Below are positions 685 through 19,142 of a stretch of DNA of 22,335 nt, piece by piece. Below the pieces are notes generated by a model. That model searched no databases. It saw nothing but the letters and a program-made list of their open reading frames with translations, and was not told the DNA's origin. Numbering within the stretch: position 1 is the first letter of the stretch; every line of letters begins with the position of its first letter. The position numbers and the translations under genes were made by a program. The DNA is from Methanomicrobia archaeon (GTDB lineage Archaea; Methanobacteriota_B; Thermococci; Methanofastidiosales; NM3), in contig JAUVXU010000020.1 in the NCBI GenBank assembly GCA_030603445.1, positions 1-22,335 of the forward strand. The letters are read 5' to 3'.

Positions 685-3600
685 ATGGTACAATGCTATT
701 GGCGTATGTCTAGTAGATTTTTTATTATTGGCCTATTGGTAATCTTGCTACTTATCCCCCTGCAGACTACGTCTGCTGAAGACGACTTCTTGGAGTTGTC
801 ATTTGGTGCAAACCCATTCCAGATAATGGGGGGATACCCTTACGATATTATAGACATGGAAAGCTTTGTAGCATCTGGTGAAATGGGAACGCCAATGCTT
901 CCTCAACAGGTGCTAGATATTGAGATACCTTCAAGCGCAGACCCAAATACCCTTTCTCTGGAAATCATTTCTTTAGAATCGATGCAGCTTGAAGGCACTT
1001 ATGATATTGGTCCTGCCCCAGAGCCTGCAACGCCTGAAGAAAGTGTAGAAACGGGATTAGTGGATGGAAAGAATCAAATGGTGTATGGTGCAGATGAATA
1101 TTATCCCTACTCCCCCGCTAAGATACAAAGGATCTATCAATCAAATGAGGTCACTATAGCACAGATAATCTTCACCGCCATGGCCTACAACCCTATGCAG
1201 CATGCACTACTTCTAAACACTTATGTAACTGTAAGGGTATCATGGGATACGAAGCATGTGCTTGGAAGCTTCCCGCCGCCTCCTTCTTACAACGGTTATA
1301 TCATTGTAACAACGAACCATCTAAGGAACAACTCAACAGTTATGGTGCCTATCTTCACAAATTGGCTCCAATCCCGTGGTTTTAATATACAGGTCATAAC
1401 AGAGGATGACTATGGGTATGCTCCCGGTCAGCAAAGGGCAATAAATATCCGAAACTGGTTGATAACAAATCAACATGCAAAGAAGATAAGGTACGTCCTG
1501 CTAATAGGGAATCCTGATCCGGACGACCCTTCTTCAAATGATTCTTACGGGGAAATACCCATGTTGATGTGCTGGCCCCAGGGTTCTCCTCCAAAAGGTT
1601 CAGGCGTTCCAACAGACCATTTCTATGCAGACTTGAATGGGAATTGGGATTACAACAGTGACCAGTTCTACGGCGAGTTCGGCCCTGACGGCACCGAGAT
1701 GGGATTCGGGGTGGACTTCGGCCCGGAAGTATATGTTGGAAGAATACCTGTCTACTTCAACAGCGTGGAGGAACTAGACCTGATACTCAATCGGACCATA
1801 TCATACAACGGGGCAAATAAGAGCATGCTTCTACCGATGGCAATCAGCAATTTTACAGGGGAAGTAAAGCCAGATATGACAACATTTGGGGCACGCACTG
1901 ATGGGCGCGATATCCCAAAAGAGGCAATTGATAACATCGCAAATCCTCAAGGCTATACTAATTATGTCATGCATGAAATCCATGGGATCGCCGGAGTCCC
2001 CACAAGCGCCTATGAATATGACGGCCCCCTCACACATTCAAACGTCATCTCCTTGTGGCCTAACGACTACGGCATAGTGTTCTGGTGGGGCCACGGCTAT
2101 AGCCAGGGTGCCATTAGCAGGATATGGTCAAGTGATGATGGGGACGGGGTGCCGGAGCATTTTGAGATACTGTCTCCATCATTTATTACGTCTGGAGACT
2201 TTTATAACATGTCTAAACAGACTAAATCATTCGTATACATGTGCGCTTGTTGCAACGGATGGCCAGAAGACCCCAATAACATAGGTTTTGCGGCCCTTTT
2301 CACCGGCGCGATCACAACAGTCAGCGCAACGAGAATAAGTTATTATGTGATGGGCAGCTGGAATATGGCGGGAGCCAGGGTCAACACAGACCTCGGGTAT
2401 GAGTATGTTGACAGGCTAGTAAATCAGGGCGTATCTGCAGGGGAAGCTCTTTTTGAGGCGAAAAACGCCCTTGTGGACCTGTATGGCTGGATGGGCTTTA
2501 GTTGGCAGAACCTAATGGACTTCAATTTATACGGTGAGCCCTCCCTCACACTGCAAAACCCCGCACAACCTGCATCCCTTACCTGCTCGCTTGCCTTATC
2601 CCCAAATAATGTGACCACAGGACAGCAAGTTATAGTCAATATGGCTGTTACAAACAACGGCGGCTCAACGGCCTCAAACGTCATCCCATCCGCCCTTACC
2701 ATCATGACCACAGGAACTGTTAGTGCCACATTCATTAATGCTCCAACATCAGCTGCCACACTATTAGCGGGACAACAACAACAGTTCAGTTGGACGCTGC
2801 AAGTTAGTGCAGGTGCAAGCGGAGGCACATTGTGGGTCACAGGAAACGCAACAGGCGCTGATTCTTCTACAAGCATGTCCATATCTTCCAGCACATGCAC
2901 TTCCTCTGCTATCGCAGTTTCCCCATACTCTACTCTGCATGCCACCATTTACACGACAAAGAGCGGACAGAACTGCACAGTATACTTGCAGGTAACCAAC
3001 CAAGGTCCTATAACGGCCATGCAAGTGACGCCCCACATTTCAACAGTATTGTCAGGCACTTCGTATATTAGCTCCGTAACATCCACATCCAATGCGCCTG
3101 TATCGATATTAGCGGGCGGTACAACCACATTTAGTTGGAGTTTTGTCATCAACCCTGGAACAGGCGGCGGCGGGGCAACATTCACAGGATATGCCGCTGG
3201 CACAGATTCTAGCGGACCTATTCAGTCCAACGCATCTTCTACCTCAGTATCGTTCCTGACACCTGCATCGCTAAATGTCACCATTGTCGCTAATCCGGAG
3301 GATGTAGCTATTGGGGGAAAGATAACAGTCACAGTACATATCACAAACGAAGGGCAATCAGATGCCATAAACATCAGTATTAATTCATGGGATATTGACG
3401 GGAATGAAAATGTCAATCTGTTACAGGGCCCATCACCATCATCTATTACCATCCCTGGGCTTTCATCGGGCACTATCGTGTTCAAATACAGTGCTCTTGG
3501 CCCCGGAAGAGTTATTTTCCAAGGGGATTTAGTTGGTATTGATAACGAAAGTGGAACAAACATATATTCTTCCCAGTTCGGTTCTAATGCTGTAACGATA

Positions 3601-3858
3601 TCCTCATCCATTTTCTCTTATTTCCTTTCAGAAAAGCTCATGCGGCTAAATAACTTCTGGATATGCATACGTACTGGGATGCCTGTTTTGTGGGATGATG
3701 GTTCAGTACCGTTACTAAATCAGTTATCTGGCCAGATGGAAGGTGTAATAAGCCTTGATGACATGCTATATGTCATGGACCAACTCAATGCTGCCATAGA
3801 TACCATGGAACAGATAAACCTGTATTTAGGGTGCGGATGCGACGTATTATCCTCTTAA
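685..3858 (+). CDS. Secreted gingipain-like (C25) cysteine peptidase with CARDB-like repeats
   Basis: 1057 residues from the ATG at 685. An in-frame ATG at 706 gives a more conventional signal peptide (short basic start, FIIGLLVILLLIP core, cleavage near TSA|ED), and neither start has a clear ribosome site. Residues about 32-195 resemble a C25 propeptide. About 200-625 is the Peptidase_C25 caspase-fold region. The catalytic dyad appears intact: His470 in WWGHG, and Cys522 in ACCNG, which matches the gingipain ACxNG motif. Three CARDB/DUF11-like beta-sandwich repeats follow, at about 630-740, 747-855 and 858-970, each with a VTNNG/VTNQG/ITNEG-type core. The last 85 residues form an unrecognised domain ending in CGC, with no visible PGF-CTERM or other anchor. 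It is an endopeptidase acting outside the cell. The ABC exporter starts 115 bases downstream on its own promoter; a functional link is not shown. Confidence 0.88.
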   Translation: MVQCYWRMSSRFFIIGLLVILLLIPLQTTSAEDDFLELSFGANPFQIMGGYPYDIIDMESFVASGEMGTPMLPQQVLDIEIPSSADPNTLSLEIISLESMQLEGTYDIGPAPEPATPEESVETGLVDGKNQMVYGADEYYPYSPAKIQRIYQSNEVTIAQIIFTAMAYNPMQHALLLNTYVTVRVSWDTKHVLGSFPPPPSYNGYIIVTTNHLRNNSTVMVPIFTNWLQSRGFNIQVITEDDYGYAPGQQRAINIRNWLITNQHAKKIRYVLLIGNPDPDDPSSNDSYGEIPMLMCWPQGSPPKGSGVPTDHFYADLNGNWDYNSDQFYGEFGPDGTEMGFGVDFGPEVYVGRIPVYFNSVEELDLILNRTISYNGANKSMLLPMAISNFTGEVKPDMTTFGARTDGRDIPKEAIDNIANPQGYTNYVMHEIHGIAGVPTSAYEYDGPLTHSNVISLWPNDYGIVFWWGHGYSQGAISRIWSSDDGDGVPEHFEILSPSFITSGDFYNMSKQTKSFVYMCACCNGWPEDPNNIGFAALFTGAITTVSATRISYYVMGSWNMAGARVNTDLGYEYVDRLVNQGVSAGEALFEAKNALVDLYGWMGFSWQNLMDFNLYGEPSLTLQNPAQPASLTCSLALSPNNVTTGQQVIVNMAVTNNGGSTASNVIPSALTIMTTGTVSATFINAPTSAATLLAGQQQQFSWTLQVSAGASGGTLWVTGNATGADSSTSMSISSSTCTSSAIAVSPYSTLHATIYTTKSGQNCTVYLQVTNQGPITAMQVTPHISTVLSGTSYISSVTSTSNAPVSILAGGTTTFSWSFVINPGTGGGGATFTGYAAGTDSSGPIQSNASSTSVSFLTPASLNVTIVANPEDVAIGGKITVTVHITNEGQSDAINISINSWDIDGNENVNLLQGPSPSSITIPGLSSGTIVFKYSALGPGRVIFQGDLVGIDNESGTNIYSSQFGSNAVTISSSIFSYFLSEKLMRLNNFWICIRTGMPVLWDDGSVPLLNQLSGQMEGVISLDDMLYVMDQLNAAIDTMEQINLYLGCGCDVLSS

Positions 3859-11193: not shown

Positions 11194-12753
11194 TTAATTC
11201 TTCTCAATTATTATTGGTGTTATCCCTAAAGGTATGGCAGAAGAAGACACAATATCCGTTGGCGTGATTATCGGCTCACCACCTTCTAATTCTGTGATGA
11301 TATATGTAATAGCATACTGGCCGCTTCCAAGTATCTCGCTAAGGTCATGGGGCATAAATACGTCTCCTTCCCTATCCCAAACAATATATTTTATCGCGCC
11401 ATCAACGTTGCATTCATATATCTTGAGATTATCTTTGCCCACTTCTTTAATTGAATTAAATCCGCCAATCTCCTCGCACAATAACTTATATGTGTAGTAA
11501 GAGGGTTTTCGGCTCCAGTCTGATTCCAAAAGGCTCATGACCTCCCAAGGCCCATGCCAGTATCCTCCCTCTGTTGCTCTTAAGCCCCATCTCTGGCGCT
11601 CCACGCCGTTTGCAGCACTCATGACAAAAAGCTTTATAACAAATTCGGCATTCTCCTTTGGCGTCCAGAAACCAAAATATGTATCCCCTTGTGGAGAATC
11701 GTCGCCTGGCGCGTTTTTAAATGGGCCGCCGCCTTCACAGACCCATATAGGTTTTCTGCAGTTGTATTCTTCCATTCTGTCATGAAGCCATGCAAGCTTT
11801 CCTTCAAGAAACGTTTCCTTGGGTTCGTATAGATGGATGTCTACTATATCATAATAATCGCATTGGCTTAGGATCTGCTCATACCCTTCTTTTTCCTGGC
11901 GTATGAAAGGATGCAGCAAAAGCACCTCTCTTCGAAACTTGATGCCGCCCCACACACCCGCTTCATCATCTTCGATATATCCGTCGACAAAGGCGAACAT
12001 TCTCCCATAGTTTCCTGCAAGACCAGGTATGATGACCTGGGCTTTTGGGTCAGCTCCTTTGATAGCACCATGAACAGCTTTAAGCGCCTCGATGTACGTA
12101 TCCACATCAGGCCATCCAGGCATAGGGTATTCTTCGATAAAGTGCCAGTTGCGAACAGCATATGAAAGCCCCGGCATATCATCAATGCCATCGCCATCGT
12201 ATCGCTCCACTGCAATAGAGATAAAATCGGCAAAATCAGTCAGGGAATCACCATGGGGATACAGTTCGTATTCTATAGAGACGTGGTCGTCTCGCATCAA
12301 CGATATCAGGGCCGAGGTCGGATCCGTATACTGGGTTGTCGCCATTTTTTCCAAAAGCAGATTTTCCAATATCTCCCTTTTTTCACCAAAGGCGTTCATC
12401 GCTGGCGACAAGACCATTGTAATGTCAATACCCATTGACTGGAGCCATGAGACTTCGCTGTCTAGGTCTGACCAGTCGTATACGCCTGGTTCAGCCTCTA
12501 TTGCAAACCATGGGACATGCGGCTGTAAAGACACCCAAGAAATGCCCAGGTCCTCAACAATGGCCATGTCTATAGGATTTGAGTGCATGCTAAGCATGGT
12601 AAGGCCAAAGAACATGTTCTGCTCTTCAAATGGATACGGGGAAGGCGTATCGCTTGGCGGCAACGTTGTTATCTCAACATCCCCACCTCCCACACAACCT
12701 GTGACAAGTACGGTAATAAAAAGCAGTGCCAGGACAAAACGTGAACAATTCAT
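11194..12753 (-). CDS. Lipoprotein with glycoside-hydrolase (clan A-like) TIM barrel
   Basis: 519 residues. The signal peptide ends in a lipobox LVTGC with Cys20 as the lipidation site, followed by a Gly/Thr/Pro linker to about residue 45, so the enzyme is anchored on the outer face of the membrane. Residues about 50-420 read as a beta/alpha barrel of the GH39/GH5/GH42 kind: the GVYDWSDLDSEVSWLQSMGID opening (quoted here only as YDWSDLD), NWHFIEEYP at strand 4 with Glu208 as candidate acid/base, DIVDIHLYEP at strand 6, and PIWVCEGGG at strand 7 with Glu340 as candidate nucleophile. The usual Asn before the acid/base Glu is replaced by Glu207. The C-terminal 80 residues are beta-rich. A TATA-like stretch at 12773-12783 would give a leaderless mRNA. 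The sugar substrate is unknown. Confidence 0.75.
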   Translation of the reverse strand: MNCSRFVLALLFITVLVTGCVGGGDVEITTLPPSDTPSPYPFEEQNMFFGLTMLSMHSNPIDMAIVEDLGISWVSLQPHVPWFAIEAEPGVYDWSDLDSEVSWLQSMGIDITMVLSPAMNAFGEKREILENLLLEKMATTQYTDPTSALISLMRDDHVSIEYELYPHGDSLTDFADFISIAVERYDGDGIDDMPGLSYAVRNWHFIEEYPMPGWPDVDTYIEALKAVHGAIKGADPKAQVIIPGLAGNYGRMFAFVDGYIEDDEAGVWGGIKFRREVLLLHPFIRQEKEGYEQILSQCDYYDIVDIHLYEPKETFLEGKLAWLHDRMEEYNCRKPIWVCEGGGPFKNAPGDDSPQGDTYFGFWTPKENAEFVIKLFVMSAANGVERQRWGLRATEGGYWHGPWEVMSLLESDWSRKPSYYTYKLLCEEIGGFNSIKEVGKDNLKIYECNVDGAIKYIVWDREGDVFMPHDLSEILGSGQYAITYIITELEGGEPIITPTDIVSSSAIPLGITPIIIEKN

Positions 12754-12819: not shown

Positions 12820-14814
12820 TTAACGGTTTAGTATCCACATGATGACATCTTTATCTGTAATAATATAGAATCTGCCTATTTTCTCAGCATTCTCAAATGG
12901 CGTGAAAGTAATGTAGGCATCCGGCAACACCCATTCATTATCAGATGCCACTTCCCACCATGCGCCCTGGTCAGTACGCAGATTAGTGAGCGTGACCACC
13001 ATGTCCGGCACCCATATTATATTGCTATGTATGATTGCGTCCTCATCCAATACTTCCTCAAGATAATCTGCCATTATCTCGCAATCCTCATCATAATGTT
13101 TTTCAAACAATATGCCATCATCATTTGTCCAAAGCATCATTGCTGCATTGCTTCCGGTGATATTTATCATTACGGGCGGCCATGTGGTAGAAACTAGGGA
13201 TATTGAAGGAACTAGCATAAGTGCTATCAAAAGGGCATACTGCCTTTTAGATGATAATTTGTCTTTCATATACACGCCAATGCAAATCGCCCATAGCGGC
13301 GTCGTGTGGATCCAATACCTCCCCCCGTAAAAGAGGAGTATGGGCAAAGTGCCCATTAGTATTAATTTTATCACGCGCTGTTCTGGCACAGAATTGTCCA
13401 TATGCCTATATGCAAGAAGGCCGAGCACGAGCAGGATGGGATTTATTATCTGCAAAGACAAGATGCCTATAAACAGCCATTTTACCGAGAGAAGCTGATC
13501 AGTCGTGGAAGTGAAGGAAGCCTGATTGGACAGTATCCTTTGCAGCCAAGGCGTATACAAAGCGATTGACGCACCAGCTATTAGCACATAATTCTTCCTG
13601 TATTCCGGGTATTTTAAGACTACAAGAAGCAATGCGAATAGTATCACGAAAGGAAAGGAGAGATGAGAGTAAAGCATTATTGTCATTATAGCGATTGATG
13701 GGACGATTTTTTTGTAGGTGAAACAAAGGATCAGTAAAGGCAAAAGCATGGTGATTATGCATGAGGGAAGCGCCATTGTTGATACCATCATAAAACCCAT
13801 ATCTACGCTAAGAAAGAATACGGAAAACGCTGCAACCTTCGAACCAAAGAACTTCCTTGCCAAAATAAATGTAGTAACAAGGCAAAGTGGGTATATTAGC
13901 GCCTGAAATACCTGTCCGCCCCAGATGACATTATCAGGCCTTCTTGCTATTGCGGCTATTGACAAGTGCAAGAAAGGAGGGTACAAGTGCGGCCTTCCGG
14001 CAGGTGCAAATTCCCAAAAGTCCCATAAGGGGATTACTCCTAGCTCGAGTATTTTTCTAGAAATTGCAAGATGGTACCAAAGGTCTATCACATTAGGGGA
14101 GAACTTGTGGACATTAAAGGCAAATGATACGCCTATTATAAGGATGAATGCTATAGCTATCCTGTCCCAGAACGTATCTTTTTCCCCTAATAGATGCGTC
14201 ATTGCCTCTTCGTGGCCCACCTTTTTTGCCAGATAGGCCATAAGGGAGAACAGGACGCCAATAACGGCAAAAATCAGTGTGTAAAGATACCCTGCGCTTA
14301 CAAAAGCTATCAGGCCAGCTATTGTTGCAAGGACCGCTATAACTCTACCGGCCGTCCCTTTCTTCCATAAGGTAAGTACTACTGGGCCAAAGCCAAGTGT
14401 TGCTATTATAAATGGGACCTTGTAGTAGATGCCATAAAATTTTTTGAATGCCAACTGTATAAAATAGTAGAAGAGGGGAAATATGCGAAAGATACTGCCC
14501 TTTGGCTTCTCATCTGCCGAATACGACCCTACTAACGCATATATAAAATTTAGTATCCTCCCGATTACTAGTAGAACAATGTATATGGCATAGAGGCGCA
14601 AATGTATAAGCAGTAAAACGGCCAAAATTATAAGGAGTATTGTGCATAGCGTGAAGGCGTGCCTTCTCTTGTCTTTTCCTCTGTTGGAATAAACATATTC
14701 TGCAAGGGGGAATATGCCAAGAGTAAGCGCCCAGTATGCAGGAAGGTGCCATCCCTTGCCTGCTGCCTTTATGCTGAAGCGCTCAATATATCCAAAAAAC
14801 CTCTCCATTAGCAT
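12820..14814 (-). CDS. Multi-spanning GT-C type glycosyltransferase (PMT/ArnT-like)
   Basis: 664 residues. The N-terminal part (to about 210) has roughly six hydrophobic helices and a basic loop. The main GT-C part then starts with a helix at 218-234 and the first outside loop carrying DLWYH (244-248) and HLYPP (276-280). These resemble the acidic and Y-P-P motifs of lipid-linked-sugar transferases. Further helices run to about 545, and a soluble outside domain of about 120 residues ends the protein. This layout suggests transfer of a sugar from a polyprenyl-phosphate donor on the outer face of the membrane. The extra N-terminal membrane block is unusual for plain PMT proteins. The gene lies 66 bases upstream of the glycosidase lipoprotein on the same strand, which may point to a shared surface-glycan role. 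ATG at 14808 is an alternative start. Confidence 0.7.
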   Translation of the reverse strand: MLMERFFGYIERFSIKAAGKGWHLPAYWALTLGIFPLAEYVYSNRGKDKRRHAFTLCTILLIILAVLLLIHLRLYAIYIVLLVIGRILNFIYALVGSYSADEKPKGSIFRIFPLFYYFIQLAFKKFYGIYYKVPFIIATLGFGPVVLTLWKKGTAGRVIAVLATIAGLIAFVSAGYLYTLIFAVIGVLFSLMAYLAKKVGHEEAMTHLLGEKDTFWDRIAIAFILIIGVSFAFNVHKFSPNVIDLWYHLAISRKILELGVIPLWDFWEFAPAGRPHLYPPFLHLSIAAIARRPDNVIWGGQVFQALIYPLCLVTTFILARKFFGSKVAAFSVFFLSVDMGFMMVSTMALPSCIITMLLPLLILCFTYKKIVPSIAIMTIMLYSHLSFPFVILFALLLVVLKYPEYRKNYVLIAGASIALYTPWLQRILSNQASFTSTTDQLLSVKWLFIGILSLQIINPILLVLGLLAYRHMDNSVPEQRVIKLILMGTLPILLFYGGRYWIHTTPLWAICIGVYMKDKLSSKRQYALLIALMLVPSISLVSTTWPPVMINITGSNAAMMLWTNDDGILFEKHYDEDCEIMADYLEEVLDEDAIIHSNIIWVPDMVVTLTNLRTDQGAWWEVASDNEWVLPDAYITFTPFENAEKIGRFYIITDKDVIMWILNR

Positions 14815-14853: not shown

Positions 14854-15849
14854 TTAGATATGGCCGTTATCCTTATACCAATTAATGGCCTCCTCTAGGC
14901 CGGAGTGCAGACCATAATCTGGTTTAAATCCAAGCTCGCTCTTTATTTTTTCTATTGAGTACGCCCGATCCACACTCACAGCTTCAATAGTGCTGGCGTT
15001 ATATAAGAAGTTATAATTTCCTATGACCTTATTTACGGCCTGTATCGGTGCAATAAGAAGCTTTGCCAGTAGCTTTGGCAGGTGTAATTTAGGGGCTTTC
15101 CTGCCTGAGAGCTCTGCTAACATGCCATACACCTGATTGTACGAATAAGCCTTTTCATCACTTACAATGTATGTCTGATGAATTGATGCGTCCCCACTTT
15201 CTAGTGCTAGTGCAAAAGCCTTGGCAACATCCTTGACGTGGACGAACTGTACAAGATTATCCCCGCTTCCAACTATGAAAAGTGTAGCTATCGAGTTTTT
15301 TGCAAATGATGTTATCATCCAGTAAGAGACGTCATTTATGTTTCGCGGGCCGTATATGCCGGATGGCCTAATAATTGTATAATCCAGACCCATCTTAGCG
15401 TGCTTTCTTACCACTTCTTCTGCGGCAAGCTTTGACTTGCCGTAATCATATTGTGGATTCGGCTTATCCTCTTCAGTTCCCGGCAGTTCTTCTACAGGGC
15501 CTGTAGCCTCAGTGGAACTGCAGTACAGAAACCTCTTCACCCCGTTTTCTAATGCGGCCTCAATAAGTGTGTGCGTGCCTTTGACATTGATGGAATGATA
15601 AATCTCTTTTTTTCCATTAAAAGTATAATACGCCGCCAGGTGGCATATGGCATCAACACCCTTTGTTGCATCCTTTAGGCTTTTTGGGTCGCTTAGGTCT
15701 GCATGGCGGATTTGTCCGCCTAGTGCCTCAAGCAATCTTGTGTCACTTGTCTTTCTGACAATGCATACTACCTCATGGCCCCTTCTGGCAAGCTCCTCTA
15801 CCAAGTAGCCGCCCAAAAATCCTGAAGCTCCTGTAACTGCAACTTTCAT
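14854..15849 (-). CDS. Extended SDR: NAD(P)-dependent reductase/epimerase
   Basis: 331 residues. The Rossmann motif TGASGFLG is at 6-13, CHLAAYYT is at 69-76, the active-site serine/threonine lies in CSSTEA (110-115), and the catalytic Tyr136/Lys140 pair is in YGKSK. IRPSGIYGPR and FVHVKDVAKA follow in the usual order for extended SDRs. The overall look is nearer to dihydroflavonol-reductase or 3-beta-hydroxysteroid-dehydrogenase-like enzymes than to sugar epimerases, but this is a judgement from motifs. It is the last gene of the lux-like operon, starting four bases after the LuxC-like stop, with its GTGAT ribosome site overlapping that stop. It could reduce the aldehyde or a keto group of the LuxC product (inference). 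Confidence 0.88.
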   Translation of the reverse strand: MKVAVTGASGFLGGYLVEELARRGHEVVCIVRKTSDTRLLEALGGQIRHADLSDPKSLKDATKGVDAICHLAAYYTFNGKKEIYHSINVKGTHTLIEAALENGVKRFLYCSSTEATGPVEELPGTEEDKPNPQYDYGKSKLAAEEVVRKHAKMGLDYTIIRPSGIYGPRNINDVSYWMITSFAKNSIATLFIVGSGDNLVQFVHVKDVAKAFALALESGDASIHQTYIVSDEKAYSYNQVYGMLAELSGRKAPKLHLPKLLAKLLIAPIQAVNKVIGNYNFLYNASTIEAVSVDRAYSIEKIKSELGFKPDYGLHSGLEEAINWYKDNGHI

Positions 15850-15853
15850 CTTA

Positions 15854-17308
15854 TCACATCAAGGGTTTTGCATTGTTTCTGTAGTAGACCATGTAGGTGA
15901 ATATTGAAGCGATGTTTATTCCATCGTATGGTTCTGCTGACCTTCTAACAAACATGTCTTCTAGCTGCGTGACCCGATATATCCCCGTATGGGCTAGCTT
16001 TTGCAATATTCTCTTCTCATTGTCTATAGAAAGAGACAGCCCCACCGTCTGCACCTTATCAACGCCAAAGAACGCCATGCGCTTAGGCACATCCTTAATG
16101 ATGTCTATTGACAAGTCCAGCTCATCGACAACTATTATCTCTATGAACCTTCTCCTGTTAAAGATGTTAAACTCAGGCAAAGACATCATGATGTCCTCTA
16201 AAGCGCTTTTTTGCCTTGACACCACTATTGTCCATGGGTTGTCTTTATCTTTTGAGGAAAATATCTTTGAGCCCTTAAATAGCAGCATCTTTCTTGCGCT
16301 TTGCAATGTGAACTGGGAGCCTTTCGGGGCTCTTAGCGGTATGTCCTTAGAGATCTCATCTAATGCCATGCCGACAGCAGCTGCAAATTCGGTGGCCTTT
16401 TCCATTGATCCCACAAATACCGCCTGAGTTGGCGAACTACAAAGCTGCTGGTCGTAAAGCACCATATTTAATGCCAATCCTTTGATAGCACCAGCGGCCT
16501 TTTCTTCATCGATAACTGCAATGCCTGTAAGCGGCCCGTTGATAAGGTATGTTGGATGATTGGGATTACTTGCAACCTTTTTCCCGACCTCTGTTCTAGC
16601 CGGGTCGGCGCCCCAGAAGTTTACGACGCCTAAAGGGGCATTTTCCAAAAGATGGCCCAAACACTTGCTATCGTGCGTGAAATAACTTATGATAAGGGCA
16701 TCTGATAGTGCTTTTGCCGCTTTGGAATTATCGGAAATGTCATGAAGCGCCTTAAACACCTCAACTACCCCTACGTGGTTTGAGATCGATGGTTTTAGTA
16801 TTGTAAGATTTCCTGTTACGAGGGAAAGTGTTGTTGGAATAAGCGGCGGTATCACCGAGTTTCCTGAACTAATGATAAATATCGGCCCTGACGGGAGATA
16901 CCTGTAATATTCGCCATCCTCCACTTCTACGAACTTGTGCAGCCCTTCATGTCCTCCTGAAAAAGAGCATGAGAGATTCCTTAGTATATTGTCTTTTGCA
17001 AATACGTGCGGCACAAGGGAAAACTCAATATCAATAAGCTCCTTGCTGTATCCTGTTGATTTGGACAGTGACTGCTTTAGCCAGTCATATTTGCCGGAAG
17101 CTGTGTTATCCTGCCATATCCTGCCTACGTTATCTAATGCCTCAATCCTATCCGCTACAGGTATTTCGGCTAGTGTTTCCTGTACGGATTGCGCCTTTTG
17201 GAGCAGCGCGTCAATAGATTTTATGCTCACCTCAGATATATTGTGCTCGCCAGTGGTCTTGTCTAGTAGTTCTATCTCTTCGAAAGTATGCAGTGGTTTG
17301 ATATCCAT
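15854..17308 (-). CDS. luxC-like: LuxC-like acyl reductase (aldehyde-forming)
   Basis: 484 residues, the usual LuxC length. It belongs to the ALDH-fold acyl-CoA/acyl-protein reductase family (PF05893 type). The dinucleotide-binding half includes YRYLPSGPIFIISSGNSV (residues about 135-152) and LTILKPS (168-174). The nucleophile is Cys290 in DQQLCSSPTQ, matching the cysteine that carries the acyl group in bacterial LuxC, and GADPARTEVG is at 233-242. The enzyme takes an acyl group from LuxE, forms a thioester and reduces it with NAD(P)H to an aldehyde. It follows the LuxE-like gene by 13 bases and precedes the SDR by 4. No luciferase or LuxD gene is present in the window. Confidence 0.87.
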   Translation of the reverse strand: MDIKPLHTFEEIELLDKTTGEHNISEVSIKSIDALLQKAQSVQETLAEIPVADRIEALDNVGRIWQDNTASGKYDWLKQSLSKSTGYSKELIDIEFSLVPHVFAKDNILRNLSCSFSGGHEGLHKFVEVEDGEYYRYLPSGPIFIISSGNSVIPPLIPTTLSLVTGNLTILKPSISNHVGVVEVFKALHDISDNSKAAKALSDALIISYFTHDSKCLGHLLENAPLGVVNFWGADPARTEVGKKVASNPNHPTYLINGPLTGIAVIDEEKAAGAIKGLALNMVLYDQQLCSSPTQAVFVGSMEKATEFAAAVGMALDEISKDIPLRAPKGSQFTLQSARKMLLFKGSKIFSSKDKDNPWTIVVSRQKSALEDIMMSLPEFNIFNRRRFIEIIVVDELDLSIDIIKDVPKRMAFFGVDKVQTVGLSLSIDNEKRILQKLAHTGIYRVTQLEDMFVRRSAEPYDGINIASIFTYMVYYRNNAKPLM

Positions 17309-17321
17309 ATGCTTCCCGCCG

Positions 17322-18581
17322 TTATTTTGACATCATCTCTTCAAGAGTTCCCCCGCATGCGCGCTGGAGGTCCCAACCCTCTTCTACGGTAAATCTTCTC
17401 TTGTAGACGTATTCTTTACCATAATACCTTTCTGAAGGATGTGATTCCATAAGGTCGCCTGGATAAAACACTTCAAGCCATGAAGTTACAAATGGATTAA
17501 AGACGCCAAGCACTCCTTCCTTGCCATCCTCATCCATTGGTTCAAGCGTGTTTTTGTCTAGCAGGAACACGTGTGATAACGGATGCGGCACCTTGTCCAT
17601 TACGCCAAAACGATCTATCATCGCTGTTAATGTCTCTGTCATGCCAAGCACGTCCATAAACGGCACGCGCCTCTTGTTGCTATTCTTATCAGAGCTTGTG
17701 AAGTGTTTTCTTGATAGGTCAACTATCTTGTCGTATGCAGGAAGGTCGCTGGCCCCCTTGCTGCCTCCGCCAGTAATGATTGCTCCCCCTTCCTTTAGAT
17801 CGACAGGAGGGGAACCTGTGGCCATCTTGTAAGCCAGCTTCCTGAAGATGCCCATGGTCTCAAACTTCTGGGACATTAAGTACATCCCTGCAGGAGCGGT
17901 GAAAAACAGCTTTGGCCCTTCCTTTATTTTCAAGAACTTTACGATGTTCTCCTTGTTTGGGACAAGTTTTTGCCATAACGATACGTTGTCGTCAGTCTGC
18001 TTCATATCCATGCCGTAAATTAGATCTAGCCCCTTGTTCTCAAGTGCTAAGTATACTGAAGCGATAAAATAAAGCCTGTCCTGAAGCTCTGGTGCTGCCA
18101 TAAACAGTGCGGTGCCTTTTCCCTCTTCAAGGTAATCGCCATATACATATTCAAAAATGTCAGTGTTCGCTTTCATCATTATGTCAAGGTCCAAAGGGCT
18201 GCGATATACCCTTACTGGCATCTTGCCTGTTGTCCCGCTTGAAGTATATGTTTTGCCATCTGATTCTAAGTCCTTTATCAAAAATGGTTTTTGGCCATCC
18301 CCTCTTAGCATGTCTGAAGGAACTGCAAGCTTGGCTAGATCTGCAAAATCAGCACTTTTTGGAACGATGTTCAAATTCTCAAAAAGATTGGCATAATAAT
18401 CATTTTTCTTGCTAAAATAAGCCAGGCAATCCCTTAGAAGCCCTTTGCGAATCTTTGTCAGCTGGTCTGGGGATTTTTTGAACAGGCCATCATTCTTTAC
18501 TAGATCATGGACTTTTTTTACATATGGGTCTTTTAGAAGCTTACTTTTTGATGCTAGGGTCTTTATCTCTTCAGCTTTCAT
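17322..18581 (-). CDS. luxE-like: LuxE-like acyl-protein synthetase
   Basis: 419 residues from the ATG at 18581; an in-frame GTG at 18587 overlaps the GGTG ribosome site and is less likely. The adenylate-forming motif SSGTTGK is at about 114-120, and a second acyl-adenylate motif LGMTETLTAMIDRFG follows near 310. The protein ends WDLQRACGGTLEEMMSK, in which Cys409 sits where LuxE family members carry the acyl-accepting cysteine. Together these fit LuxE: activation of a carboxylic acid with ATP and transfer to its own cysteine, then to LuxC. It is the first gene of the operon, with a TATA box at 18613-18623 and a palindrome between that box and the start. It is diverged from Vibrio LuxE, with about 50 extra N-terminal residues, so the true acid substrate may differ. 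Confidence 0.85.
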   Translation of the reverse strand: MKAEEIKTLASKSKLLKDPYVKKVHDLVKNDGLFKKSPDQLTKIRKGLLRDCLAYFSKKNDYYANLFENLNIVPKSADFADLAKLAVPSDMLRGDGQKPFLIKDLESDGKTYTSSGTTGKMPVRVYRSPLDLDIMMKANTDIFEYVYGDYLEEGKGTALFMAAPELQDRLYFIASVYLALENKGLDLIYGMDMKQTDDNVSLWQKLVPNKENIVKFLKIKEGPKLFFTAPAGMYLMSQKFETMGIFRKLAYKMATGSPPVDLKEGGAIITGGGSKGASDLPAYDKIVDLSRKHFTSSDKNSNKRRVPFMDVLGMTETLTAMIDRFGVMDKVPHPLSHVFLLDKNTLEPMDEDGKEGVLGVFNPFVTSWLEVFYPGDLMESHPSERYYGKEYVYKRRFTVEEGWDLQRACGGTLEEMMSK

Positions 18582-18600
18582 TAACACACCTATGGCTTTT

Positions 18601-18623
18601 AGAATATTCTAAGAATATATAAC
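18601..18623 (-). promoter_or_regulatory. Promoter of the lux-like operon with palindrome
   Basis: The minus strand carries the TATA box GTTATATATTC at 18613-18623, about 37 bases before the ATG at 18581. The perfect 10-base palindrome AGAATATTCT lies at 18601-18610, between the TATA box and the predicted transcription start near 18592. A repressor there would block the promoter. AT-rich palindromes occur by chance, so support is modest. Confidence 0.4.
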
Positions 18624-18857: not shown

Positions 18858-19142
18858 ATGAAAAAAATGTTGTGGTGGATGATAGCTGGCACAAAAGGGG
18901 GAATAAATCGTGCCAGGATAACTAACATGTTGCATGATAGGCCGTATAATGCAAATCAACTAGCCAAGAAGCTAGATCTAGATTACAAAACCATAAGACA
19001 CCACCTTAAGGTCATGGAGGACAACAATATTATTACGTCATCTGGGGGGGAAAAATACGGGGAAGTCTATTTTCTTTCTACCATGATGGAGAAAAATTAC
19101 GATATTTTTGAAGAGATTTGGGAGAAAATTGGAAAAAAGTAA
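18858..19142 (+). CDS. Winged-helix (ArsR-like) transcriptional regulator
   Basis: 94 residues. The order [15 protein letters not shown], then [20 protein letters not shown] (32-51), then [10 protein letters not shown] and KYGEVYFLS is the archaeal winged-helix type with a recognition helix around DYKTIRHHL and a wing at 60-73. There is no cysteine or histidine metal site, so it is probably not a metal sensor. The gene is divergent from the lux-like operon (277 bases between starts) and is the first of four same-strand genes leading to an ABC exporter. It is a candidate repressor of that exporter through the inverted repeat at 19550-19576 and possibly of the lux-like promoter. A TATA-like GATATATGC near 18819-18825 precedes it. 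Confidence 0.85.

What the first reader, a model, noticed from the sequence alone, without database searches (positions are those of the whole stretch)
14854..18581. Luciferase-free LuxE-LuxC fatty-acid-reductase operon with an SDR in an archaeon
Seen: three tightly spaced genes (gaps 13 and 4 bases) encoding a LuxE-like synthetase with SSGTTGK and a C-terminal Cys, a LuxC-like reductase with Cys in LCSSP, and an SDR with Tyr136/Lys140. Known: LuxE and LuxC relay an activated acyl group through these cysteines and reduce it to an aldehyde; in luminous bacteria they work with LuxD and luciferase LuxAB. Neither LuxD nor LuxAB is in this window. Inference: the operon makes an aldehyde, and possibly an alcohol through the SDR, from an endogenous carboxylic acid. 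In an organism with isoprenoid lipids the substrate is an open question and could be an isoprenoid acid, a scavenged fatty acid or an envelope component. The neighbouring glycosyltransferase and glycosidase hint at an envelope role.
Basis: partly seen in the sequence, partly recalled or inferred. Interest (0 to 1): 0.75.

Follow-up and report, generated by a model that had tools for sequence, protein, structure and literature searches.

The report
Archaeal LuxE-LuxC-SDR acid-reduction operon
This methanogen-like archaeon carries a conserved three-gene set, related to the enzymes that make the aldehyde fuel of glowing bacteria, which probably turns an unknown carboxylic acid into an aldehyde and then an alcohol without making light; the same set, unremarked in the papers I could search, sits in many other methanogens and in probable Odinarchaea.

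Summary
On the minus strand lie LuxE-like (17322-18587), LuxC (15854-17308) and extended SDR (14854-15849), with gaps of 13 and 4 bases. The LuxE-like protein has no Pfam match even at E 10. As a family profile, however, its best solved relative is LuxE itself (7xc6_E, E 5.5e-6), and its C-terminal Cys411 aligns with that of Pfam-positive archaeal LuxE. LuxC Cys290 (YDQQLCSS) aligns with the known acylation site YDQQACFS. The nearest solved relative of the SDR is 3wj7 (Gox2253). The genome has MCR and no detectable luciferase-family gene.

The same trio, in the same order, occurs in 28 archaeal genomes: Methanofastidiosia-like methanogens, MCR-bearing methanogens of a second phylum, and probable Odinarchaeum. 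The neighbouring glycosyltransferase and glycosidase are not conserved, so the envelope hint falls. In 14 of the 28 loci a UbiA prenyltransferase follows, which suggests a lipid link, but it is absent from the other lineages.

Best reading: ATP activation, Cys-to-Cys acyl relay, reduction to an aldehyde, then to an alcohol by the SDR. The substrate is unknown. Luciferase-free LuxE/LuxC is already known in bacterial glycan loci; the divergent LuxE, the fixed SDR partner and the archaeal spread are new to me.

The parts
17322..18587 (-). LuxE-like acyl-protein synthetase (421 aa from GTG; 419 aa from ATG 18581), first gene of the trio
   Evidence: no Pfam at E 10; profile hits 7xc6_E LuxE E 5.5e-6; hhalign 99.5% with PF04443-type archaeal LuxE
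18222..18242 (-). SSGTTGK adenylate-forming motif (residues 116-122)
   Evidence: SSGTTG at least 95% conserved in 27 loci
17355..17357 (-). codon of Cys411, putative LuxE acyl-transfer cysteine (QRACGG)
   Evidence: invariant in 14 family members; aligns with the C-terminal Cys of archaeal LuxE; LuxE Cys364 is the known site in P. phosphoreum
15854..17308 (-). LuxC acyl reductase (484 aa)
   Evidence: PF05893 123 bits; PDB 7xc6_A E 2.8e-11; model of moderate confidence, best match 7xc6_A Z 20.6
16439..16441 (-). codon of Cys290 of LuxC (YDQQLCSS), putative acylation and reduction site
   Evidence: aligned with YDQQACFS of 7xc6_A, whose Cys286 is the known acylation site
14854..15849 (-). extended SDR oxidoreductase (331 aa), third gene of the trio
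   Evidence: PF01370 168 bits; best solved relative 3wj7, full length, E 3.4e-35
15430..15444 (-). YGKSK: SDR Tyr136 and Lys140 (YxxxK)
18615..18622 (-). TTATATAT, possible archaeal TATA box 41 bases upstream of the LuxE ATG
   Evidence: read from sequence; not tested statistically

Best explanation
The three genes form one enzyme module that reduces a carboxylic acid. The LuxE-like enzyme activates the acid with ATP as acyl-AMP and takes the acyl group onto its C-terminal Cys411. The acyl group moves to Cys290 of LuxC, which reduces it with NADPH to an aldehyde. The SDR then reduces the aldehyde to an alcohol. Shown here: homology, position of the cysteines, presence of the SDR active site, and strict co-conservation of the three genes in order. 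Inferred: the reaction sequence, the cofactor and the SDR's role. The acid is unknown; a lipid or isoprenoid acid is my leading guess, at about 35-40%.
For: LuxC over the PF05893 cut-off; fold and sequence match to LuxC of the LuxC-LuxE complex; catalytic Cys aligned. LuxE family profile: best PDB hit is LuxE chain E of the same complex, and profile-profile match to PF04443-type LuxE with the C-terminal Cys aligned. SDR closest to 3wj7 over its full length, which I recall as Gox2253, an NADPH-dependent reductase of C7-C10 aldehydes. Trio in 28 genomes (window included), LuxC-SDR junction overlapping by 4 bases in most of the 27 others, pairwise distances of the three proteins correlated at 0.91-0.96.
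Against: No activity is known for any archaeal member. The SDR family is broad: sugar-nucleotide epimerases and dehydratases, OleD and HpnA also match it. One genome (G889) has LuxE-LuxC without an adjacent SDR. The LuxE model was unusable (pLDDT 31.5), so its pocket was not examined. Distance correlations of this size are also expected for any co-inherited genes.
Confidence: 0.68

Rival explanations
1. Glycan pathway: the trio makes a modified sugar acid, hydroxy acid or deoxy sugar for a surface glycan. LuxE/LuxC reduce a short hydroxy acid, and the SDR acts as an epimerase, dehydratase or reductase on that or a sugar-linked intermediate.
For: Luciferase-free LuxE/LuxC sit in flagellin glycosylation islands, and a LuxE domain is reported in V. 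cholerae RfbN for the O-antigen tetronate. The SDR matches sugar epimerases.
Against: No glycosyltransferase or nucleotide-sugar gene was seen conserved next to the trio in the other loci read. The SDR's best full-length solved relative is 3wj7 (Gox2253), not a sugar enzyme.
Confidence: 0.17
2. Isoprenoid or lipid pathway with UbiA (a narrower form of the best explanation, not exclusive of it): the alcohol made by the trio, or the acid it uses, is the partner of a UbiA prenyltransferase, giving a prenyl ether or prenylated cofactor.
For: UbiA follows the SDR in the same direction in 14 of 28 loci, with a convergent radical SAM gene in 11. In other Methanofastidiosales a different LuxE-LuxC pair is divergent from a UbiA gene in 6 loci, and G003 has UbiA two genes from LuxE.
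Against: That UbiA/radical SAM pair has no close counterpart in the window genome, its family or the Odinarchaeum-like genomes. In family f37 it lies on another contig, and G856 keeps it after losing the trio, so the two units can be separated.
Confidence: 0.3
3. The LuxE-like protein is really a PaaK-type CoA ligase and LuxC takes an acyl-CoA, so there is no acyl-protein relay.
For: No Pfam LuxE match; the next PDB hits are phenylacetate-CoA ligases.
Against: LuxE ranks first (E 5.5e-6 against 0.016) and the ligase match covers only the N-terminal part. The C-terminal Cys is invariant and aligns with LuxE. The gene was beside LuxC wherever the contig allowed, apart from the truncated copies in G002 and G856.
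Confidence: 0.1
4. The pair runs backwards, oxidising an aldehyde to an acid and conserving ATP.
For: LuxC has the aldehyde dehydrogenase fold.
Against: LuxC acts as a reductase in the known system; nothing in the context suggests an aldehyde source.
Confidence: 0.04

Closest known systems
LuxC-LuxE fatty acid reductase of luminous bacteria (PDB 7xc6, Photobacterium phosphoreum)
   Same: Homologous reductase and synthetase, both acyl-site cysteines in place, genes adjacent.
   Different: No luciferase-family gene found; LuxE too divergent for Pfam; an SDR is the usual third gene; archaeal host.
Luciferase-free LuxE/LuxC genes in flagellin glycosylation islands and O-antigen loci
   Same: LuxE/LuxC used without light production.
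   Different: Those sit with glycosyltransferases and acyl carrier or fatty-acid genes; no such context is conserved here.
Pfam-positive LuxE-LuxC pairs of other archaea (f4 Methanofastidiosales; FIST-LuxE-LuxC genomes)
   Same: Same two enzyme families side by side.
   Different: Distant proteins (22-28% identity to f4), no SDR, other neighbours (UbiA or FIST).
Gox2253 (PDB 3wj7), SDR of Gluconobacter oxydans
   Same: Full-length match, E 3.4e-35.
   Different: Not part of a LuxE-LuxC operon as far as I know; substrate here unknown.

Membership tests
LuxC (PF05893) | Score over the curated cut-off | tested here: met
   123.1 bits against 21
LuxC (PF05893) | Acylation cysteine in YDQQ-C | tested here: met
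   YDQQLCSS aligned with YDQQACFS
LuxC (PF05893) | NADPH-dependent acyl reduction | not testable with these tools
   needs enzyme assay
LuxC long-chain equivalog (NF052251) | Score over the equivalog cut-off | tested here: not met
   56.5 bits against 750
LuxE (PF04443, Pfam sense) | Match to the Pfam profile | tested here: not met
   no match at E up to 10
LuxE (homology sense) | Detectable kinship with known LuxE | tested here: met
   7xc6_E E 5.5e-6, top hit; hhalign 99.5%, E 4e-22
LuxE (homology sense) | C-terminal acyl-transfer cysteine | tested here: met
   C411 invariant in 14 rows and aligned with the archaeal LuxE Cys; the printed alignment to 7xc6_E itself stops before it
LuxE (homology sense) | Acyl-AMP and acyl-protein formation | not testable with these tools
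   needs enzyme assay
Extended SDR | Rossmann glycine motif and YxxxK | tested here: met
   TGASGFLGG, Tyr136 and Lys140, PF01370 168 bits
HpnA hopanoid-associated epimerase (TIGR03466) | Score over the equivalog cut-off | tested here: not met
   179.5 bits against 367.65
Bioluminescence (lux) operon | luxAB luciferase | tested here: not met
   no PF00296 match in a 96% complete genome
Bioluminescence (lux) operon | luxD thioesterase | not tested
   no LuxD family search was run on the genome

The most novel reading that the evidence does not exclude
An unrecognised archaeal lipid or cofactor pathway of methanogens with MCR, in which LuxE-LuxC-SDR makes a specific alcohol that becomes a building block, in some lineages the acceptor of a UbiA prenyltransferase, for a membrane lipid or lipid-soluble carrier not yet described.
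Probability: 0.2. Interest if true: 0.8.

Novelty: new variant of a known kind. Interest (0 to 1): 0.56.

Why it matters
A LuxE branch that Pfam does not see, paired with LuxC and nearly always with one SDR, runs through two groups of methanogens and probable Odinarchaea. Archaea build membranes from isoprenoids, so a dedicated acid-to-alcohol reductase there points to a product nobody has assigned. Because the operon is so compact and consistent, its chemistry can be tested directly with three purified proteins.

Tried and rejected
Structure of LuxE: the model from three sequences was unusable (pLDDT 31.5), so no fold search was made with it. Plasmid tblastn with LuxC and LuxE: no match. Viral contigs with the LuxC family: none. 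The one scan of genome contigs used patterns too narrow to reach the other phyla and found only three close relatives; wider distribution came from the genome search. Envelope role from neighbours: rejected, neighbours not conserved. Bioluminescence: rejected, no luciferase-family gene. Butanetriol/pentanetriol tetraether backbone as the product (lipids first linked to Methanomassiliicoccus luminyensis): considered, but nothing ties the trio to it, and Bathyarchaeia are now reported to make these lipids too; I did not test Bathyarchaeia for the trio specifically. Joint transfer into family f1 from another archaeal lineage: the three f1 members form a clade for LuxE (97/98) but not for LuxC or SDR; a clade is not rejected (p-AU 0.229 and 0.063), so undecided.

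Full report
What is there. Three minus-strand genes follow each other in the window: LuxE-like 17322-18587, LuxC 15854-17308 and SDR 14854-15849, with 13- and 4-base gaps. LuxE could start at GTG 18587 or ATG 18581. A TTATATAT element lies 41 bases before that ATG, and a divergent ArsR-type regulator gene starts at 18858; neither was tested for function.

The organism. The window is contig C26 of a 1.62-Mb, 96% complete genome. Its close relatives with the trio include a record titled Candidatus Methanofastidiosia archaeon, and Thermococcus-like genome sizes dominate the rest of its class (my inference). The genome encodes MCR alpha, so it is very probably a methanogen or a related MCR user. 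No luciferase-family gene was detected.

LuxC. It scores 123 bits with PF05893. Its best solved relative is LuxC of the P. phosphoreum LuxC-LuxE complex, by sequence (E 2.8e-11 for the family profile) and by fold (Foldseek E 5e-13, VIA Z 20.6, rmsd 4.7 over 402 residues; the model is of only moderate confidence, mean pLDDT 61.5, and the Cys region is below 50). Cys290 in YDQQLCSS aligns with YDQQACFS, whose Cys286 is the published acylation site.

LuxE. No Pfam model matches at E up to 10, and NCBIfam gives only a weak N-terminal FlxY hit. The family alignment nevertheless picks LuxE chain E of 7xc6 first in the whole PDB (E 5.5e-6), ahead of phenylacetate-CoA ligases (0.016). Profile-profile comparison with Pfam-positive archaeal LuxE gives 99.5% probability and aligns QRACGG with the C-terminal Cys motif of those proteins. 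Cys411 is invariant in 14 members.

SDR. Extended SDR with TGASGFLGG and Tyr136/Lys140. Broad epimerase and 3-beta-HSD families match; the equivalog models HpnA, SdmB and OleD are all far below their cut-offs. Its best solved relative over the full length is 3wj7. A paper in the library cites the Gox2253 structure by Yin et al. 2014; that 3wj7 is that entry and that Gox2253 reduces C7-C10 aldehydes rests on my memory, as the paper is not held.

Distribution. The trio in the same order and strand was found in 27 other genomes: G001 and G004 of the same family; two Odinarchaeum-like genomes (G123 is a single 1,418,269-base contig, matching the published 1.418-Mbp closed Odinarchaeum chromosome; identity inferred from size and phylum); and 23 genomes of the phylum of G302. 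Eleven genomes of that phylum were tested for MCR alpha and ten have it, so they are methanogens or close kin, probably Methanomassiliicoccales (inferred, not named by the tools). The two Odinarchaeum-like genomes have no MCR. LuxC and SDR overlap by 4 bases in most loci. G889 has LuxE-LuxC without an adjacent SDR. G002, 92-95% identical to G001 in the flanks, lacks the 4.1 kb that hold the end of LuxE, LuxC and SDR, and its LuxE is also split; either a recent natural loss or an assembly fault. The module therefore looks accessory rather than essential.

Neighbours. The window's glycosyltransferase-like and glycosidase-like genes were not seen beside the trio in the other loci read, so the envelope hint is dropped. 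In families f97 and f190, 14 loci have a UbiA prenyltransferase after the SDR, 11 of them with a convergent radical SAM gene; f1, f14, f176, f37 and f194 loci lack it. Close counterparts of this pair were not found in the window genome. G856 keeps the pair with only a LuxE remnant. The association is real but not obligatory.

Trees. LuxE and LuxC of the trio form one clade each, on very long branches from other archaeal LuxE and LuxC (100/100). The f1 members are a clade for LuxE and unresolved for LuxC and SDR. Whether the trio spread between archaeal phyla by transfer, or came from bacteria, is open: bacterial genomes could not be searched with the family profile.

Function. Known LuxE activates an acid with ATP, holds it on a C-terminal Cys and passes it to a Cys of LuxC, which reduces it with NADPH. 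With both cysteines conserved and a likely aldehyde-reducing SDR as the third gene, the simplest account is acid to aldehyde to alcohol. The steps are inferred by homology; none was shown here.

Novelty. Luciferase-free LuxE/LuxC is known from flagellin glycosylation islands (PMC4875605, PMC7874193) and O-antigen synthesis (PMC4772473). I found no paper in the library on this operon in methanogens or Asgard archaea. I file it as a new variant of a known kind.

Noticed in passing
L063 4302-8361; L064 7796-12260; L065 4049-8167; L066 1-6846; L071 2863-5338: A FIST-domain protein gene lies directly upstream of LuxE (and LuxC in most) in five other archaeal genomes: a second, different LuxE-LuxC arrangement.
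   Followed up: partly
L026, L068, L069, L070, L075, L076: Other Methanofastidiosales (family f4) carry a distant LuxE-LuxC pair divergent from a UbiA prenyltransferase gene.
   Followed up: partly
L113 12839-14778 and similar loci: A MenA/BchG-like UbiA gene and a convergent radical SAM gene form a conserved pair in the second methanogen phylum; it persists in G856 after loss of the trio.
   Followed up: partly
L023 (G002) against L021 (G001): A 4.1-kb stretch containing LuxE end, LuxC, SDR and two more genes is missing in G002 between flanks 92-95% identical, and the remaining LuxE is split by a frameshift.
   Followed up: partly
window 12820-14814 and 11194-12753: The large membrane protein next to the trio has no Pfam match, and the lipobox-bearing glycosidase-like protein has only a sub-threshold GH42 match.
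   Followed up: no
window 685-3858: A 1057-aa secreted-type protein with a peptidase C25 (gingipain-like) domain and CARDB/DUF11-like repeats.
   Followed up: no
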